Positions 56,707 to 64,000 of a stretch of 64,000 nucleotides of DNA are shown here, one piece after another. The stretch spans positions 682,001-746,000 of the forward strand of contig NZ_CP065957.1 of NCBI RefSeq assembly GCF_017310505.1, in the 5' to 3' direction. The first letter of the stretch is position 1. The number at the start of each line of letters is the position of its first letter. The translations under genes and the position numbers were made by a program. A model generated the notes under the pieces. It was given only the letters and a program-made list of their open reading frames with translations. It had not been told where the DNA came from and searched no databases. Source of the stretch: Methylacidiphilum caldifontis (lineage in GTDB: Bacteria; Verrucomicrobiota; Verrucomicrobiia; Methylacidiphilales; Methylacidiphilaceae).

Positions 56707-57495
56707 ATGGTCAGGCTGAGCGTTCTAGCGAGTGGAAGCAAAGGCAACGGTTACTTGTTGGAAACTGAAAAATCCCGTGTTCTTATAGACCCTGGAATTC
56801 GGTGCAAACAGATCCTTGATCATCTTTCTAGGTTAGCCATTTCTCTTGAGTCCATAACAGCCGTTTTTATTACCCATGAACATGCCGACCATGTCGCTGG
56901 GCTACCTGTCTTGTTAAAAAAACTGCCTTTGCCTTTATATTGCAACACCCTTACTTGGAAATCGTTGAAAAAAGCAATGGGATGGGAAGATAAAGCAGTG
57001 AATTGGAAGCCTTTTGAGTCGAGTAGTCGATTTCTCTTGGATGAGATAGAAATCGAAAGCTTCCCCGTGCCCCATGATGCAGCTGATCCCGTAGGGCTTC
57101 TCTTCCATCACCGACATGGAACGATTGGACTTCTCACAGACCTCGGCTACATCACAAAATTAGTGAAAGAAAAGATTATCCGCTCTCATACCTTAATTCT
57201 GGAATCCAACTATGACATGAACTTGCTACAAGCGGACAAGAAAAGACCTTGGTCAGTAAAACAAAGAATTTTATCTCGCCACGGGCATCTTTCCAATGAA
57301 GCGAGTTCTTTAATCGCCTGTGACTTGGCCAGGGAAGGAGTTAAAAACCTATTCTTGGCTCATTTGAGTGAAGATTGTAACCGCGTAGAACTGGCCGAAA
57401 CGACCGTAAAAAATAAGATCCTTTCTTCCAAACTTCCCATTCCTCACATCCAGGCCATAGATCCGGCTCATCCCTTCTTACAAATTACGCTCTAA
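56707..57495 (+). CDS. MBL-fold metallohydrolase (YycJ/WalJ-like)
   Basis: 262 residues. The beta-lactamase-like motif THEHADHVAGLP supplies zinc ligands. LSVLASGSKGNGYLLETEKS, DPGIRCKQILDHLSRL and LESNYDMNLLQADKKRPWSV with HGHLSNEASSLIACDLAREG match YycJ-like exo-nucleases or related metal enzymes. The natural substrate is uncertain. It is the last host-like gene before the second accessory island. Confidence 0.88.
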   Translation: MVRLSVLASGSKGNGYLLETEKSRVLIDPGIRCKQILDHLSRLAISLESITAVFITHEHADHVAGLPVLLKKLPLPLYCNTLTWKSLKKAMGWEDKAVNWKPFESSSRFLLDEIEIESFPVPHDAADPVGLLFHHRHGTIGLLTDLGYITKLVKEKIIRSHTLILESNYDMNLLQADKKRPWSVKQRILSRHGHLSNEASSLIACDLAREGVKNLFLAHLSEDCNRVELAETTVKNKILSSKLPIPHIQAIDPAHPFLQITL

Positions 57496-57516
57496 ACAAA
57501 ACCGTTGCGCTTCGCG

Positions 57517-58259
57517 GGCAAAATCCTGTCCTCCACTATCTTCCATGTTGCGGATATATGGTTTGTCAGCATCACCGTGGACAGCCAAGACCCGCTGCGA
57601 CACCGCGATGAAAACAAAGGCATGGTTTGGGGTGGATTTGGGCATTGTGACCCAGGCGAAGCTCTTGACGGGAGAGACCCTCCCCGGCCCCAAGGCCGCA
57701 CACGGCCCTGCTCAAGAGTCTTTGCAGGCTCTTGCGCCGTCTTTCGCGCAACCGGGCGAAGGTGCGCATTAAGCTTGCGCAGCTTCACGCCCGCATCGCC
57801 AAACATACGACAGGAGGCCCTGCACAAGCTTATATCCAGCCTCAGCCGGCGATTACACACCACCGCCATCGAGGTACTGAATGCGCGTGGGAGAGGCAGA
57901 AACCGCCATCTGGCCCAATCCATTGCCAACATGGGCTTTTTCGAGTTCCGGTGAAAGTTGGAATACAAGGCCGAACGGCACGGCGGCTTGGTGCTTGTGG
58001 CGGATCGGTTCTTCGCCAGTAGCTAAGAGGTGCTCCGCGTGCGGGTAGGCGATCGATGTGCTGCCGTTATCGACGCGGAAAGGGGCATGACCGGCTCGTG
58101 ACACACGCCGGAGGTCAAGCCTGTAGAGAGAAAGGCTCTGGATTCAGTCACAAGGCCGAAGTAAAACCGGTCTCGATAAAGAAGGAAGTTAGCTCTGTTG
58201 CTGTTTGAGCTGGAATGAGTAAGTCTGATGGAACGAATGTCAACTACGTTGTAGCCTAG
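57517..58259 (+). pseudogene. degenerate tnpB (OrfB) of an IS605-family element
   Basis: Pieces of a different TnpB lie in successive frames. KILSSTIFHVADIWFVSITV is followed by WFGVDLGIVTQAKLLTGETL, NRHLAQSIANMGFFEFR, LEYKAERHGG and VADRFFAS. The typical C-terminal tail KPVSIKKEVSSVAV and MSKSDGTNVNYVVA stops at 58257-58259. The N-terminal third is missing and several frameshifts and stops interrupt the rest. It belongs to another OrfB subgroup than the copy at 27086. No tnpA accompanies it. Confidence 0.8.
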
Positions 58260-58263
58260 CAGT

Positions 58264-58641
58264 CTACGCGACGAAGTACCGTATCATAAAGCCCGATGTC
58301 TTCTCCCTCATGCTTATTAATGCAAGTGTAGGCAAGGCTGGGGCTTCGTAGCGCTTGAATTTATACACCGCATCGTTCATCAGGGCGCTGTTGAACACCC
58401 CCAGGCTGACGAGTAGTTCAAAGTCCTTTACCGTCAATCCAGTGACCTTCTTGAACAACCCTGGCTCCAATTTCGAGAGGCGGATACCTCCTCGAAGGTC
58501 CTGGTTGTATTCTTCAACCGTACGAGGTGGTTTGCTCCAACTAGTTTCTTTGATAAAAAAAGCCAGTTCCTTGCGGGTCATGCAGATTTTGTTGCCGTGG
58601 TAGATCATCATGGGATTGGCTCGACAAGGTGGATCCACCAA
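58264..58641 (-). CDS. hypothetical protein, probably a C-terminal fragment
   Basis: 125 residues whose start is not convincing. The region VEEYNQDLRGGIRLSKLEPG, LFKKVTGLTVKDFELLVSLG and VFNSALMNDAVYKFKRYEAP looks like the end of a larger enzyme. It gives me a faint impression of restriction-modification proteins, but I cannot name the family. It ends five bases from the broken tnpB, so it was probably truncated by rearrangement. Confidence 0.35.
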   Translation of the reverse strand: MVDPPCRANPMMIYHGNKICMTRKELAFFIKETSWSKPPRTVEEYNQDLRGGIRLSKLEPGLFKKVTGLTVKDFELLVSLGVFNSALMNDAVYKFKRYEAPALPTLALISMREKTSGFMIRYFVA

Positions 58642-58700
58642 TAGATTACCACCAAACGCCCACCCCTGCCTAGAAGGAGAGTAAACTGATAGTTATACCT

Positions 58701-59033
58701 GTGTTCGATTCGCTCAACCTCCACCTCGAAGAGAAAGGCATGTCTAGAAAACAAGCCGAACCGGAGGCGCTGAGCGAGTTCGTTTTTGCCAATTTGGCCA
58801 CAAAGGCAGACATCGCCGAGATCAAAGGCGAGATTGCTGGGTTGGACCGGCGCATCTCATCGTTCAAGAACGAAATTGTAGACCTGCACGGAAAGCTGTG
58901 TAAAATCGACGCCAGTTTCGAACGCATAGACCGCAAATTCACTCTCTACTTCACGGCGATTCTGTTCGCCGTGATCTTTCTCAACCAGGATGCACTGGCG
59001 TTCATTGCCCGACTGTTCAGACTGATCCGCTAG
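58701..59033 (+). CDS. small coiled-coil membrane protein (DUF1640/CCDC90-like)
   Basis: 110 residues starting at GTG. SLNLHLEEKGMSRKQAEPEA and LSEFVFANLATKADIAEIKG are typical of the LATKADIA-type coiled-coil family. A heptad-like helix (about 38-78) leads to a C-terminal membrane span (about 80-98, FTLYFTAILFAVIFL). An AAGGAGAG lies at about 58673-58680, rather far from the GTG; an internal ATG at 58740 is an alternative. Function unknown. It ends in a strong terminator. Confidence 0.7.
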   Translation: MFDSLNLHLEEKGMSRKQAEPEALSEFVFANLATKADIAEIKGEIAGLDRRISSFKNEIVDLHGKLCKIDASFERIDRKFTLYFTAILFAVIFLNQDALAFIARLFRLIR

Positions 59034-59058
59034 TGCACCTTGTCCGCCAACCCCTTGT

Positions 59059-59106
59059 CGGGGAATATCCGTCCCTGGTAAGGGACGTGGTTTCCCCGGC
59101 TTTTTT
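59059..59106 (+). terminator. rho-independent terminator
   Basis: A two-part stem (CGGGGAA/TTCCCCG outside, CGTCCC/GGGACG inside, loop TGGTAA) is followed by six T residues. It lies 26 bases after the stop of the coiled-coil gene at 58701-59033. Confidence 0.75.
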
Positions 59107-59297
59107 GTCATAAACCCGAACGGCATTCGCCGATAGCGCGCCGGACGACATCATTATCAACGTATGAGCCAATGGGAGTACAGTAAGGACATCCAGTATC
59201 TAAGACAAAAATCGGAAGCAAATCGCATCCTATACTAGATGCCATCTCTTGAAGGGGATTGGGAGTGTTACACTTATCCACGTTGGATGCACAGGCA

Positions 59298-59355
59298 GGC
59301 TAACTTTCCAGTTCATGCGCGAGCGTAGCCGGTTTCGTGGAACCAGTTGTTATAC
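59298..59355 (+). other. weak attC-like sequence
   Basis: GGCTAAC and GTTATAC bound a 58-bp stretch with an internal imperfect inverted repeat (TTTCCAG/CGTGGAACCAG). The size is that of short integron attC sites, and the boxes deviate from RYYYAAC and GTTRRRY at about one position each. It lies in a mobile region but the stem is poor, so chance is possible. Confidence 0.2.
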
Positions 59356-59530
59356 GCCTATTCATTGACGCTGACACCTCAAAAAGCCGCACCTAGACCA
59401 CACAAATGGTCTCCTGACGAAAATTCAAGTTCAACGAGGACTTGAAACTACTACCCTCCCCAAAAAGGGCACATGCCTCCATAACTTTCACAAGATGCGC
59501 CAGATGCACTAGATTAGATTTAGAAAATCG

Positions 59531-59620
59531 TCTTTATCTGAAGGGAAATTGATATAAAAAAAATTTGCTTTTTGGGAAAAAAAATGATTAAATACGAATT
59601 TATCTTTATCTGAAGGGAAA
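59531..59620 (+). repeat. direct repeat including the vWA gene RBS
   Basis: TCTTTATCTGAAGGGAAA (18 bp) occurs at 59531-59548 and again at 59603-59620. GAAGGGAAA of the second copy lies about five to eight bases before the ATG at 59626. A small duplication could have copied a translation-start region. Confidence 0.7.
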
Positions 59621-59625
59621 ATGAC

Positions 59626-60459
59626 ATGGCGTACACAGCAGAAATTAACCGCAGTAATCCGACCGCGTTTCTATTTCTAATCGACCAATCCGGATCGATG
59701 AATGATCAGATGTCATCATGTAAATCAAAAGCGGAGCAGGTAGCCGATGTACTAAACCGAACACTTGCTAGCCTGATCATCCGCTGCACTAAGGCCGAAG
59801 GAGTCCGGGATTACTTCGAGATCGGAGTAATTGGGTATGGCGGTAATGGGGTCTATAACGCCTTTCAGGGCATGCTCGGATCATCCGTTATGCATCCGAT
59901 CTCTGCTATAGAAAAATCCCCGCTGCGCATCGAGGAGCGCAAGAAGAAAATGGACGATGGGGCAGGAGGTATTATCGAACAATCCGTGAAGTTCCCAGTT
60001 TGGTTTGAGCCTCATGCGAGTGGGGGGACACCGATGTGTTTAGCGATCACAAAAGCTGTAGAAGAGCTTGTACCCTGGTGTGATTCCCACCCAAACAGCT
60101 ATCCGCCGACCGTTCTACACATTACGGACGGAGAGTCCACCGACGGAGACCCGGAAGAACTCACCACACAGCTTCGCCAGATTCAGACAAACGATGGTTC
60201 TCTCCTAACGTACAACTTGCACGTCAGCACCTCTGGTGCAAATCCTATTGAGTTTCCGGCCTCCGAAATGGGGCTACCAGACGCCTATGCCAAGCTTCTG
60301 TTTCGAATGTCAAGTCAACTTCCAGCGCACCTCATTAGATATGCCCAAGAGAGAGGTTATACGGTAGGCACGGAGTCCCGAGGCTTCATGTTCAACGGGG
60401 ATATCGTACAGATCGTGGAGTTTTTCGATATTGGTACGCGTGCCTCACAACTGCGCTAA
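59626..60459 (+). CDS. vWA-domain protein, TerY-like (TerY-P triad)
   Basis: 277 residues. The vWA fold carries a complete metal-ion-dependent adhesion site: D20-x-S22-x-S24 (LIDQSGSM), T135 (HASGGTPM) and D168 (HITDGESTDGD). Residues about 180-277 add two beta-hairpin-like segments. It matches TerY-like vWA proteins, which bind a partner through the metal. The gene heads a three-gene operon with a PP2C-like phosphatase and a kinase (gap 19 bp, then a 23-bp overlap), the arrangement named TerY-P triad and linked to stress response and phage defence. Its RBS GAAGGGAAA supports the start. Confidence 0.85.
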   Translation: MAYTAEINRSNPTAFLFLIDQSGSMNDQMSSCKSKAEQVADVLNRTLASLIIRCTKAEGVRDYFEIGVIGYGGNGVYNAFQGMLGSSVMHPISAIEKSPLRIEERKKKMDDGAGGIIEQSVKFPVWFEPHASGGTPMCLAITKAVEELVPWCDSHPNSYPPTVLHITDGESTDGDPEELTTQLRQIQTNDGSLLTYNLHVSTSGANPIEFPASEMGLPDAYAKLLFRMSSQLPAHLIRYAQERGYTVGTESRGFMFNGDIVQIVEFFDIGTRASQLR

Positions 60460-60478
60460 GTTAGTCTAGAACAAGCAC

Positions 60479-61234
60479 ATGCGGGTGGTCTTTGCAGAGC
60501 AGGTACCAAAGGAGCCTTCGTTTCCCGACGTCAATGAAGACGTTCTCGAACTACGAAGAAGCGACATAGGGCGAATTGCAGTAAGCGACGGTGCTTCAGA
60601 GTCGTTCGACTCGAAGAGGTGGGCAAAGCTACTTACGGCCCGCTTCGTCCAGAACCCTAAATTAGACAAAACATGGCTTGATAGCGCCATCTCGGACTAT
60701 CAGACCCAATTTAACCCGGCTCAGATGTCTTGGTCACAGCAGGCAGCTTTCGATCGGGGAAGCTTTGCAACCCTTTTGGGGATCGAACAGCTTGTTGAGC
60801 ATAACTCAATAAGCATCTTCAGTGTTGGCGACAGCATAGCAGTGTTTTTAGACGGTAATGATTTGATTGATTCCTTTCCCTACAGGCGGGCTGAGGAGTT
60901 CCAGCAGCGTCCCGAACTGTTCAGCACCAACGCCGCGCTCAATGACTTCTTCTCATCTCCAGATTTTTCTACCCGCTATTACAAAACTTGGTCCTTGATG
61001 AACAGAAAAGCTCCTGTTGTTCTCTGCATGACAGATGCTATTGGGGAATGGTTCCTCCGAGCCGCACAAGAAGGTAATCATAAGTGGCGCGTACTGACCA
61101 AGATAAGAGACATTTCGGATTTCGAATCACTCGTGCTACAAGAACGTCAATCTGAGAACATGCGGATAGATGACACGACGCTAGTGAGGCTCGCTTTCGA
61201 CGCGATAGATAATGATGAACTACCCTACCCTTGA
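60479..61234 (+). CDS. PP2C-like serine/threonine phosphatase (TerY-P triad)
   Basis: 251 residues with PP2C (PPM) signatures in order: metal-binding E20/D21 (VNEDVLEL), D37 in AVSDGASESFDS, GSFATLLGIE, the SVGDSIAV motif (D118), TDAIGEWFL (D186) and DDTTLVRLAF (D231/D232). Because the metal ligands are kept, it probably removes phosphates placed by the kinase encoded downstream. It overlaps the kinase gene by 23 bases, suggesting translational coupling. The phosphatase could counter the kinase within a signalling switch (inference). Confidence 0.85.
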   Translation: MRVVFAEQVPKEPSFPDVNEDVLELRRSDIGRIAVSDGASESFDSKRWAKLLTARFVQNPKLDKTWLDSAISDYQTQFNPAQMSWSQQAAFDRGSFATLLGIEQLVEHNSISIFSVGDSIAVFLDGNDLIDSFPYRRAEEFQQRPELFSTNAALNDFFSSPDFSTRYYKTWSLMNRKAPVVLCMTDAIGEWFLRAAQEGNHKWRVLTKIRDISDFESLVLQERQSENMRIDDTTLVRLAFDAIDNDELPYP

Positions 61235-62945
61235 GCAGTACAACGAGACGTTACAAAACCCCCAAACCGCTCTTATTGACCCTGAGCTCAAGAAGGGTAC
61301 TATTGCGACAACCTATCTTGGTTTACCGCTCGCTTTGTGCGGCGGCTTTGCACTTACCTACACCATCACGACTGCGAGCGCCCGATACGCTGTTCGATGC
61401 TTCCACAAGCAATCGAATGCTCTCGAGCAGCGTTATAAAGCTATTTCTCAAAGGCTCAAATCGTTACGCTCCCGATACTTCCTCGATTTCGAGTTCCAGA
61501 CTCAAGGTGTACGTGTCAACGGTAAAGTATTCCCTATTGTCAAAATGGCATGGGCGAGTGGTAAGACCCTAGGGGAATTTTTAGAACAACGATATCGAAA
61601 TCCAATGGAATTACAACAGTTGAGATTATCTCTTCGATCCCTTTCCAGCTACTTGGAAAATCATCATTTGGCGCACGGCGATATACAACCTGGCAATGTC
61701 ATGGTTGCTAACGGCGGTCTTTCTGTGCAACTCATTGACTACGACGGTATGTATGTCGATGACCTAAAAGCACTTGGAAGTACTGAACTCGGGCACCGAA
61801 ATTTCCAGCATCCAAAGCGCACTAGTAACTCATGGGATTATCGACTCGACAGATTTTCTTTCATCTCTATCGATCTCGCACTTCGAGTGCTAGAGGAATG
61901 TCCGGAATTGTGGGGCAAAACGCAATCTAGCGGTGACGCTATACTGTTTAAAGCAAATGATTTTATTGATCCAAGGCAATCAGACATTTTCAACAAGCTG
62001 TTTGCACTCCCCAAGTTTTCTCAAGACGCAAAAAACTTTGCTACCATTTGCCAAAGCCCGTTCGAGAAGATTCCAACACTCGAGGAGTTCATCACCTATA
62101 AAAATATACCTCAACCAGTCATCTCGAAACCGCCCATCGCTCCTCTTGGTCCAAGGCCATATATTCCTCCCTTTCCCGTTTTAGATGCTACAAATTACGC
62201 CCTCTGCCTTCAACATGTAGGCGATCGAATAGAGCTAATTGGAAAAATCGTCGAGGTTAAAACTGGATCAACTCGCCACAGAAAGCCTTATGTTTTTGTT
62301 AACTTTGGACCATGGCAAGGGAAAAGCGTCAGAATCAGCATCTGGTCCGAAGGTCTATCTGCACTTGCACAAAAACCTGACGCACAGAAACCTAATCGCA
62401 GTTGGATCGGAAAATGGGTGAGTGTAGTTGGCCTCATGGAACCTCCATACGAAAATCGCAAATATCAATACACTCATTTGGCTATCAGCATCACGCAAGC
62501 TAATCAACTTTGTATAATCAGTGAATTGGAGGCTAAGTTCCGCTTATCGAGCACATCAATGATATCACCCAATAAAAATAGAGAAATATTGGAGGGAATA
62601 CGCAAGAAAAGCGGCACGTTATCCCCAAGCAAGACATTTACACAAGCGCCATCCAGCCCTAACCAAGCGGTTCTGCAGACCATGAAAAATACTCAATCAT
62701 CGAACACAAAGAACGACTGCTTCATTGCCACGGCTGTATACGGACCCGATTCCCCTAAAACCAATGCACTGCGCACTTGGCGCGATAGGGCGCTGGCACC
62801 CTCAAAACTAGGGCGCACTTTTATCAGCTGCTATTACACGTTGTCGCCATGGGTTGTGCCGGTCATCGAACGAAACGAACGACTCGCCTCCATCGTGATG
62901 AGAATGCTGGATTGGCTCGTTACATGGGTCGGTAAACATCCGTGA
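61212..62945 (+). CDS. atypical protein kinase with OB-fold and CFIATA domains (TerY-P triad)
   Basis: 577 residues. The N-terminal kinase-like domain (about 30-230) has YAVRCFHKQ at the usual lysine strand (Arg62 replaces the expected Lys, with K67 nearby), the catalytic loop HGDIQPGNVMV (D157, N162) and LIDYDGMYV (D176/D178) in place of DFG. A middle region (about 330-430) looks like an OB-fold (VGDRIELIGKIVEVKTG, KPYVFVNFGPWQGKSVRISI, VSVVGLMEPPYE). The end (503-577) begins CFIATAVYGPDSPKTNALRT and carries hydrophobic helices. It ends the operon. The kinase presumably phosphorylates a partner in this stress or defence module; OB and CFIATA parts may sense or localise (inference). Confidence 0.8.
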   Translation: MMNYPTLEQYNETLQNPQTALIDPELKKGTIATTYLGLPLALCGGFALTYTITTASARYAVRCFHKQSNALEQRYKAISQRLKSLRSRYFLDFEFQTQGVRVNGKVFPIVKMAWASGKTLGEFLEQRYRNPMELQQLRLSLRSLSSYLENHHLAHGDIQPGNVMVANGGLSVQLIDYDGMYVDDLKALGSTELGHRNFQHPKRTSNSWDYRLDRFSFISIDLALRVLEECPELWGKTQSSGDAILFKANDFIDPRQSDIFNKLFALPKFSQDAKNFATICQSPFEKIPTLEEFITYKNIPQPVISKPPIAPLGPRPYIPPFPVLDATNYALCLQHVGDRIELIGKIVEVKTGSTRHRKPYVFVNFGPWQGKSVRISIWSEGLSALAQKPDAQKPNRSWIGKWVSVVGLMEPPYENRKYQYTHLAISITQANQLCIISELEAKFRLSSTSMISPNKNREILEGIRKKSGTLSPSKTFTQAPSSPNQAVLQTMKNTQSSNTKNDCFIATAVYGPDSPKTNALRTWRDRALAPSKLGRTFISCYYTLSPWVVPVIERNERLASIVMRMLDWLVTWVGKHP

Positions 62946-62970
62946 TCCCATAGTCCACAATTACCCCTAT

Positions 62971-63320
62971 CCGAGCATGGCGGCCTTGATCCGCTGCACG
63001 ATCGCCGTGCCCAAGCCGTTTATCTTCACTGCCTTCAAGATTCTCATCCCGACAACAAGAGACGCCTGGATTGCCGCTTCCTTGTCCGCTTCTCGGTCTG
63101 TGGGCGGTCTAGCGTCTTACCGTTCGCCCTAGCACGGGCGAGGCTCATTTGCACCCGCTCCCGGATCATGGCCCACTCAAATTCGCCAAAGACCCCGAGC
63201 ATCTGAAATATGGCTTTCCAGACTGGCATCGTGGTATCGATCCCCTGCTAATTTAGATAGAGGTAGATCCCGTATCCGTGGATGTGGATGCCGAACAGGA
63301 AGGAAACCATGTATTGTAGC
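62971..63320 (-). pseudogene. serine recombinase/resolvase remnant
   Basis: Reading on the minus strand, FQMLGVFGEFEWAMIRERVQ and MSLARARANGKTLDRPQTEK match the conserved C-terminal half of the resolvase catalytic domain. The helix-turn-helix end (GLGTAIVQRIKAAM) is in another frame. The N-terminal part with the catalytic Ser is missing and the sequence before MPVWKAI is shifted or stopped, so it is a broken gene. It lies 25 bp after the TerY-P kinase stop. Confidence 0.7.
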
Positions 63321-63401
63321 CTCCGACAAAGCGCATCGAGTGCACTCGTACTTGGCAACGTCGGTGGCAATGGCAAAGATAACTTGAAGGTATCATGTAA
63401 C

Positions 63402-63482
63402 GGCTAACGTCCACCATAACCGGTATGTAAAAGCGCCGCTTTATTATGCTTTTGCACGTCCGAGTTGATGGTGTGGTTAGGT
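63402..63482 (-). repeat. attC-like recombination site (81 bp)
   Basis: On the minus strand the sequence starts with ACCTAAC (fits RYYYAAC) and ends with GTTAGCC (GTTRRRY with one mismatch). Between them are CACCAT and ATGGTG inverted arms and an inner GCAAAAGC/GCGCTTTTAC palindrome, with bulged positions, as in integron attC hairpins. It follows the stop of a small membrane-protein gene at short distance, exactly as in a gene cassette. No integrase is in the window. Confidence 0.6.
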
Positions 63483-63488
63483 GTCTTC

Positions 63489-63781
63489 ATTTTCAGCCTG
63501 CTATACATGACTTTTGGTTAGCAGCAAGAACAACCCAGCACAAATGTCGATAAATGCCCAAAACTCTTTTGGCAGTGAATTTTGACGATTGGGTTAAAAA
63601 GACTCGCGAGTAGCCCAAAGACCCACGGAAGAGATTGGTCTTTACGATTGTAACTTACGAGTGCAGCCCACGCAAACACCCCTGTTATCACAAAGCGCAG
63701 GAGCATGTGGTAGCCATATGGCAAAGGCGCAGCCCCAATGAATAATATTGCAACTGCGATATAAATTACGGCTACAGGCAT
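63489..63781 (-). pseudogene. small membrane protein (DUF6804-like), probable frameshift
   Basis: Starts MPVAVIYIAVAILFIGAAPL; three to four hydrophobic segments and VSYNRKDQSLPWVFGLLASL with FNPIVKIH are typical of a small cassette-borne membrane-protein family. After FNPIVKIH the original frame continues into unrelated residues and stops at 63518. A one-base deletion near 63570 seems to have occurred, because another frame continues with PKEFWAFIDICAGLFLLLTK and ends SHV at about 63510. It follows the partial gene at 63785 with a 3-base gap and precedes the attC-like site. Confidence 0.5.
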
Positions 63782-63784
63782 TGG

Positions 63785-64000
63785 CTATGACCTGCTTAAG
63801 AATTTTTTCTGGACTCCCGCGCCCATTGTATGTATGACTCCGATAATCACAAGTGGACCAAAGAAAAGACTGCCCACCTGTAGCCATGACAAGTGCCAAG
63901 CTGTCACAACACCGAACATCCCGACTATGGTACCTACAAGTGCCATGTATTCAGTAAACAACCCTCGATTGAAGTCGAATGCTTTATTCTCGATGGAAAT
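63785..64000 (-). CDS. partial hypothetical membrane protein (5' end beyond window)
   Basis: The C-terminal 71 residues of a gene running off the right edge of the window. They hold two hydrophobic segments (MALVGTIVGMFGVVTAWHL and QVGSLFFGPLVIIGVIHTMG) and end VQKKFLSRS. The frame is open to the window edge. I do not recognise it. Its stop lies three bases before the next gene, suggesting that both belong to one cassette or operon. Confidence 0.55.
   Translation of the reverse strand: MSIENKAFDFNRGLFTEYMALVGTIVGMFGVVTAWHLSWLQVGSLFFGPLVIIGVIHTMGAGVQKKFLSRS

What the first reader, a model, noticed from the sequence alone, without database searches (positions are those of the whole stretch)
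59626..62945. Intact TerY-P triad (vWA, PP2C phosphatase, kinase) inside a mobile-debris island
Seen: three contiguous plus-strand genes with 19-bp gap and 23-bp overlap, complete MIDAS in the vWA protein, all PP2C metal ligands, and a kinase with HGD and DYDG motifs. Known: this triad was described as the TerY-P module and found among candidate antiviral systems. Inference: it is kept in good condition among pseudogenes and mobile remnants, so it may be a selected defence or stress module. The trigger, effector and phosphorylated target are unknown.
Basis: partly seen in the sequence, partly recalled or inferred. Interest (0 to 1): 0.8.

Follow-up and report, generated by a model that had tools for sequence, protein, structure and literature searches.

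The report
Ordinary three-gene TerY-P anti-phage system
This is an intact copy of a known three-gene bacterial anti-virus system (TerY-P: a metal-binding scaffold, a protein phosphatase and a protein kinase) that a heat- and acid-loving methane-eating bacterium picked up by gene transfer, together with broken mobile-DNA debris; the system itself is already known, though how it works is still open.

Summary
Three open genes (59626-60459, 60479-61234, 61212-62945, +) match PADLOC's TerY, PP2C and STK_OB models almost end to end (E 7e-155, 5e-91, 3e-224). This is the stand-alone, OB-fold-kinase type of TerY-P. E. coli homologues (70/43/52% identical, same order) are annotated as TerY-P anti-phage genes, and papers report that stand-alone TerY-P protects against T7-like phages. 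It is a new member of a known kind.

The host is Methylacidiphilum (Verrucomicrobiota). No other genome of its family has the system. It lies in an 8.18-kb, ~50% G+C insert (window 57486 to ~1.7 kb past the window end) that four sister genomes lack. The insert is bounded by the two halves of an IS607-like element and otherwise holds mostly gene fragments. No fourth gene recurs at related loci, so the kinase/phosphatase pair is probably the whole system.

Two details deserve a note. The kinase's beta-3 'VAIK' lysine is arginine in 20 of 21 TerY-P kinases compared, while HGD, N and DYD are intact. The kinase also ends in a CFI-box tail, seen otherwise only in a cyanobacterial plasmid homologue. 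Interest is low to moderate.

The parts
59626..60459 (+). terY: vWA protein with complete MIDAS (277 aa)
   Evidence: PADLOC TerY E=6.9e-155, 1-277/277; MIDAS residues invariant in 9 homologues; 70% identical to E. coli TerY-P vWA protein
60479..61234 (+). PP2C-type serine/threonine phosphatase (251 aa)
   Evidence: PADLOC PP2C E=5.1e-91, 1-240/242; metal-ligand Asp residues invariant
61212..62945 (+). serine/threonine-type kinase with OB fold and CFI-box tail (577 aa as listed; start more likely at 61215)
   Evidence: PADLOC STK_OB E=2.8e-224, residues 2-501; AlphaFold2 model; Foldseek to PknB, YabT and ASK1
61212..62099 (+). kinase domain, residues 1-296
   Evidence: pLDDT about 72-97 per ten-residue block in the model; HGD157, N162, DYD176-178 conserved in 20/20 homologues
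61395..61397 (+). codon of R62, at the position of the beta-3 (VAIK) lysine
   Evidence: aligned with the VAIK lysine of ULK3; Arg in 19/20 kinases aligned, this one included, and in E. coli
62178..62561 (+). OB-fold region of the kinase, residues 323-450
   Evidence: all-beta module in the model, pLDDT about 52-84 per block; covered by STK_OB
62718..62921 (+). CFI-box-CTERM domain, residues 503-570
   Evidence: NCBIfam NF041770 E=1.2e-20; only one in the genome
59531..59555 (+). upstream copy of a 25-bp direct repeat (CTTTATCTGAAGGGAAA core) before terY
59603..59627 (+). downstream copy of the 25-bp repeat, overlapping the terY start
   Evidence: 0 of 100 shuffles of the window had two matches
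57486..64000 (.). inserted island (continues to G000:747,662 beyond the window), absent from sister genomes
   Evidence: blastn against L024-L027; junctions; GC step
57502..58235 (+). left boundary: degenerate 3' half of an IS607-like tnpB plus a 43-bp end motif (58193-58235)
58264..58641 (-). fragment of a DEAD/DEAH helicase-type protein (residues 55-112 match)
59102..59229 (+). fragment of a second TnpB family repeated in the genus
   Evidence: 79% DNA identity to G010 and G000 copies
63044..63229 (-). serine recombinase (resolvase N-terminal domain) fragment
   Evidence: Pfam PF00239 E=1.9e-5
63518..63781 (-). small membrane protein, DUF6804
   Evidence: Pfam PF20619 E=9e-17; plasmid homologues

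Best explanation
It is a complete, probably functional stand-alone TerY-P anti-phage system, acquired by a Methylacidiphilum strain in a mobile insert. Most likely mechanism: the vWA protein (TerY), with a metal ion in its MIDAS, holds a kinase and a PP2C phosphatase together as a phosphorylation switch. In uninfected cells the phosphatase keeps the system off. A phage-derived signal, probably nucleic acid bound by the kinase's OB fold, tips the balance so that the kinase phosphorylates a phage or host protein and blocks the infection. Shown: the gene content, the domain make-up, conservation of nearly all active-site residues, the absence of a recurrent fourth gene at the loci examined, the island, and (from papers on homologues) protection against T7-like phages with most infected cells surviving. 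Inferred: the trigger, the role of the OB fold, the target, and activity in this host.
For: All three proteins match the PADLOC TerY-P models over almost their whole length. The same gene order recurs in Simplicispira, Roseateles, a Pseudomonas MAG, a Campylobacteraceae MAG, Nocardia, Bacteroidales and cyanobacterial plasmids. The E. coli orthologues are annotated as TerY-P anti-phage genes, next to type I restriction-modification genes. The Pseudomonas MAG triad lies beside DRT2 and PDC-S06. Gao et al.'s TerY-P acts against T7-like phages (PMC7699616). OB-fold TerY-P modules are described as stand-alone anti-phage systems (PMC11090510). TerY-P in PAO1 acts against Autographiviridae, protects at low and high MOI, and most cells survive (PMC10889362). 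Catalytic and metal residues are conserved. About 1,100 codons are open inside an island whose mobile-element genes are broken.
Against: No phage or expression data exist for this host. The kinase lacks the standard beta-3 lysine (R62), although nearly all its relatives do too. The last ~75 residues do not fit the STK_OB model. Only one genome carries it, so selection since acquisition cannot be measured.
Confidence: 0.7

Rival explanations
1. The triad is a regulatory module for another defence or restriction system (as in CoCoNuT type II/III-A loci) and does nothing by itself.
For: TerY-P with a zinc-ribbon kinase accompanies most cnuHE-containing CoCoNuT systems; the E. coli and Pseudomonas MAG triads lie next to other defence genes.
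Against: This is the OB-fold type, described as stand-alone. No restriction or CoCoNuT gene is seen in the island. The DUF2357 search of the genome found nothing, but its controls were silent too. Partner genes differ between loci.
Confidence: 0.1
2. It is a metal, tellurite or general stress-response switch rather than an anti-phage system.
For: TerY-P triads have been linked to tellurite resistance and proposed as a metal-sensing phosphorylation switch (Anantharaman 2012, as cited in PMC11090510). The host lives in hot, acid, metal-rich settings (general knowledge).
Against: No TerD gene in the genome, with the TerD control ringing. The closest homologues are anti-phage systems or lie among defence genes.
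Confidence: 0.08
3. It is a recently arrived, non-functional relic that has not yet had time to decay.
For: It lies in debris, is confined to one genome of the family and has an atypical kinase tail.
Against: No stop or frameshift in about 1,100 codons. With random substitution at 3.5% per site, about 5 stops would be expected and none in 1% of simulations, but the age of the insert is unknown. All motifs that its relatives keep are kept.
Confidence: 0.12

Closest known systems
Stand-alone TerY-P of E. coli (NZ_CP020835 locus; PADLOC/Gao et al. 2020 type)
   Same: Same three genes in the same order; TerY 70%, PP2C 43%, kinase 52% identical; OB-fold kinase; AVRCF motif
   Different: E. coli kinase ends in a low-complexity linker and a short amphipathic helix, without a CFI box; it sits next to type I restriction genes; this one is in a verrucomicrobial methanotroph
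TerY-P of Pseudomonas aeruginosa clinical isolates (PMC10889362)
   Same: Same three domains; protects PAO1 against Autographiviridae
   Different: Sequence not compared here; its authors also describe a variant of the original TerY-P
TerY-P modules of CoCoNuT type II/III-A systems (PMC11090510)
   Same: vWA, PP2C and kinase triad
   Different: Zinc ribbon in place of the OB fold; embedded in McrBC-like operons, which were not seen here
Calothrix sp. PCC 7716 plasmid triad (AP025019)
   Same: Triad with a CFI-box tail on the kinase
   Different: Kinase only 29% identical; PP2C has an N-terminal extension

Membership tests
TerY-P (stand-alone, PADLOC/Gao type) | TerY-like vWA protein with MIDAS | tested here: met
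   Model 1-277/277, E 6.9e-155; DxSxS, T, D invariant
TerY-P (stand-alone, PADLOC/Gao type) | PP2C phosphatase with metal ligands | tested here: met
   Model 1-240/242, E 5.1e-91; Asp ligands invariant
TerY-P (stand-alone, PADLOC/Gao type) | Serine/threonine-type kinase fused to an OB fold | tested here: met
   STK_OB E 2.8e-224; kinase and OB modules in the model
TerY-P (stand-alone, PADLOC/Gao type) | Three genes adjacent on one strand in the order vWA-PP2C-STK | tested here: met
   same order in relatives
TerY-P (stand-alone, PADLOC/Gao type) | Protects against phage | not testable with these tools
   Shown in papers for homologues only
CoCoNuT-associated TerY-P | Kinase fused to a zinc ribbon | tested here: not met
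   OB fold in that place
CoCoNuT-associated TerY-P | McrBC/CnuB-CnuC and cnuHE genes alongside | tested here: inconclusive
   None seen in the island or the next 10 kb; DUF2357 search of the genome empty, but the controls were also silent
Ter (tellurite/stress) system | TerD-family genes present | tested here: not met
   PF02342 absent from the genome; controls rang

The most novel reading that the evidence does not exclude
TerY-P kinases as a family may not be ordinary protein kinases. With the beta-3 lysine replaced by arginine in nearly all members and a short hydrophobic C-terminal tail kept in many even when the middle of the tail changes (here to a CFI box), the enzyme may use a different ATP geometry, transfer something other than the gamma phosphate, or act at the membrane.
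Probability: 0.15. Interest if true: 0.6.

Novelty: new member of a known kind. Interest (0 to 1): 0.28.

Why it matters
It extends a tested anti-phage system to an extremophile verrucomicrobial methanotroph, gives a clean example of gain by a mobile insert with the empty site in sister species, and points to a shared, testable oddity (arginine for the catalytic lysine) that could help settle how TerY-P works. The system itself is already catalogued.

Tried and rejected
(1) A fourth, effector gene: neighbours in L002, L003, L004, L068, L069 and E. coli share none that I could see. (2) Phage or viral carriage: no TerY homologue in phage records or in the viral contigs. (3) DNA-level donor: no similar plasmid DNA. 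(4) dN/dS for selection: synonymous sites saturated (pS about 0.8), so not informative for time since acquisition. (5) Solved-structure relatives of TerY and PP2C by sequence profile: none at E 0.01. (6) Sigma-70 promoter scan: not above shuffles. (7) Literature on the CFI box: nothing in the library.

Full report
Observation. The three ORFs lie exactly where stated: terY 59626-60459 (277 aa), PP2C 60479-61234 (251 aa) and kinase 61212-62945 (577 aa), with a 19-bp gap and a 23-bp overlap. Homologues start at the kinase's second methionine, so 61215 is the likelier start.

Identity. PADLOC models TerY (E 6.9e-155, whole length), PP2C (5.1e-91, nearly whole length) and STK_OB (2.8e-224, residues 2-501) are hit. 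Pfam and NCBIfam give only weak general matches plus a CFI-box tail at residues 503-570 (E 1.2e-20). The nearest relatives found are proteobacterial: Simplicispira, a Pseudomonas MAG and Roseateles at 66-70% (TerY), 38-44% (PP2C) and 48-53% (kinase), always in the same order. E. coli homologues at 70/43/52% are annotated as TerY-P anti-phage genes.

Active sites. MIDAS residues are invariant in nine TerY proteins and the PP2C acidic ligands in nine PP2Cs. In 20 kinases H155-G156-D157, N162 and D176-Y177-D178 are invariant. The beta-3 position reads AVRCF: the residue aligned with the VAIK lysine of ULK3 is Arg in 19 of 20, Lys in one (L049), and Arg in E. coli too. Two of the 20 (L002 and L079) come from the same genome, so the count of independent kinases is one lower. 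R62 is thus a family trait, not damage in this copy.

Structure. The AlphaFold2 model (7-sequence alignment, mean pLDDT 71) shows a two-lobed kinase at residues 1-296 and an OB-like barrel at about 323-450; the stretch 449-558 is of very low confidence and a helix is predicted at 551-575. Foldseek returns protein kinases, including PknB, YabT and ASK1. Several proteobacterial kinases end in a short amphipathic helix (for example KGIVSKIFDWLFG); here and in a Calothrix plasmid homologue a CFI box occupies the tail, followed here by a similar hydrophobic end.

Genome and island. The window lies in a 2,254,698-base single-contig genome. The closest sister, G009, has exactly the length of Methylacidiphilum infernorum V4, 2,287,145 bp, so the host is Methylacidiphilum; M. 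caldifontis is my guess for the species and was not verified. In G009, G008, G010 and G011 the metallohydrolase gene is followed directly by the next conserved gene, with about 56 bp unaligned in G009; in this genome 8,177 bp lie between, at about 50% G+C against about 41% outside. The triad is the only one in the family. Full-length STK_OB is found in no other of 388 Verrucomicrobiota, and strong partial matches in two. Among 399 genomes of the order of Simplicispira, 9 have a strong match.

Mobile context. The left end of the island is a degenerate 3' half of an IS607-like tnpB with a 43-bp end motif (58193-58235). The right end (G000:746,604-747,640, beyond the window) is a second copy of that motif followed by the reversed 5' part of tnpB and tnpA. 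In intact copies of G009 the two tnpB parts abut at the same point, within 5 bp. The simplest reading (inference) is that the cargo sat next to an IS607-like element and that a segment from mid-tnpB to the far motif later inverted. The cargo between the motifs also holds fragments of a helicase-like gene, a second TnpB, a resolvase and a CobT-like vWA gene of conjugative plasmids.

Function. Papers report that stand-alone TerY-P protects against T7-like phages and, in P. aeruginosa, against Autographiviridae at low and high MOI with most cells surviving. OB-fold kinases mark the stand-alone type. No fourth gene recurs. The best model is a vWA-scaffolded kinase/phosphatase switch triggered by a phage signal, possibly nucleic acid at the OB fold; the trigger, target and activity in this host are inferred.

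Limits. Selection since acquisition is untested. A random-substitution simulation gives about 5 stops at 3.5% divergence, none in 1% of runs, but the insert's age is unknown. The negative DUF2357 search had silent controls. The kinase model rests on seven sequences and says little about the tail.

Verdict. Confirmed, ordinary in kind: a new member of stand-alone TerY-P in a new host lineage, with a family-wide kinase oddity worth a bench test.

Noticed in passing
window 61395-61397 (R62) and related kinases: The beta-3 catalytic lysine position is arginine in 19 of 20 TerY-P kinases aligned, and in the E. coli one as well, while HGD, N and DYD are kept.
   Followed up: partly
window 57502-58235 and G000:746,604-747,640 (L009:8605-9640): The two halves of one IS607-like element lie at opposite ends of the island, broken at the same point of tnpB, with direct copies of a 43-bp end motif flanking the cargo: looks like an inversion of cargo plus half the element.
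   Followed up: partly
window 59531-59555 and 59603-59627: A 25-bp direct repeat 72 bp apart just before terY; its 17-bp core was not found in the other loci fetched. Could be an operator or a small duplication.
   Followed up: partly
window 62718-62921; L068:10145-12079: CFI-box C-terminal domain on the kinase, shared with a Calothrix plasmid TerY-P kinase; in plasmid records the same domain also appears beside PD-(D/E)XK nuclease annotation (H8). Function unknown.
   Followed up: partly
L009:8190-8590 (G000:746,190-746,590, beyond the window): Fragment of a CobT-like vWA protein typical of large conjugative plasmids, suggesting part of the cargo came from such an element.
   Followed up: partly
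L004:4700-11620: In a Pseudomonas MAG the TerY-P triad lies beside DRT2 and the candidate system PDC-S06 (split into two ORFs).
   Followed up: no
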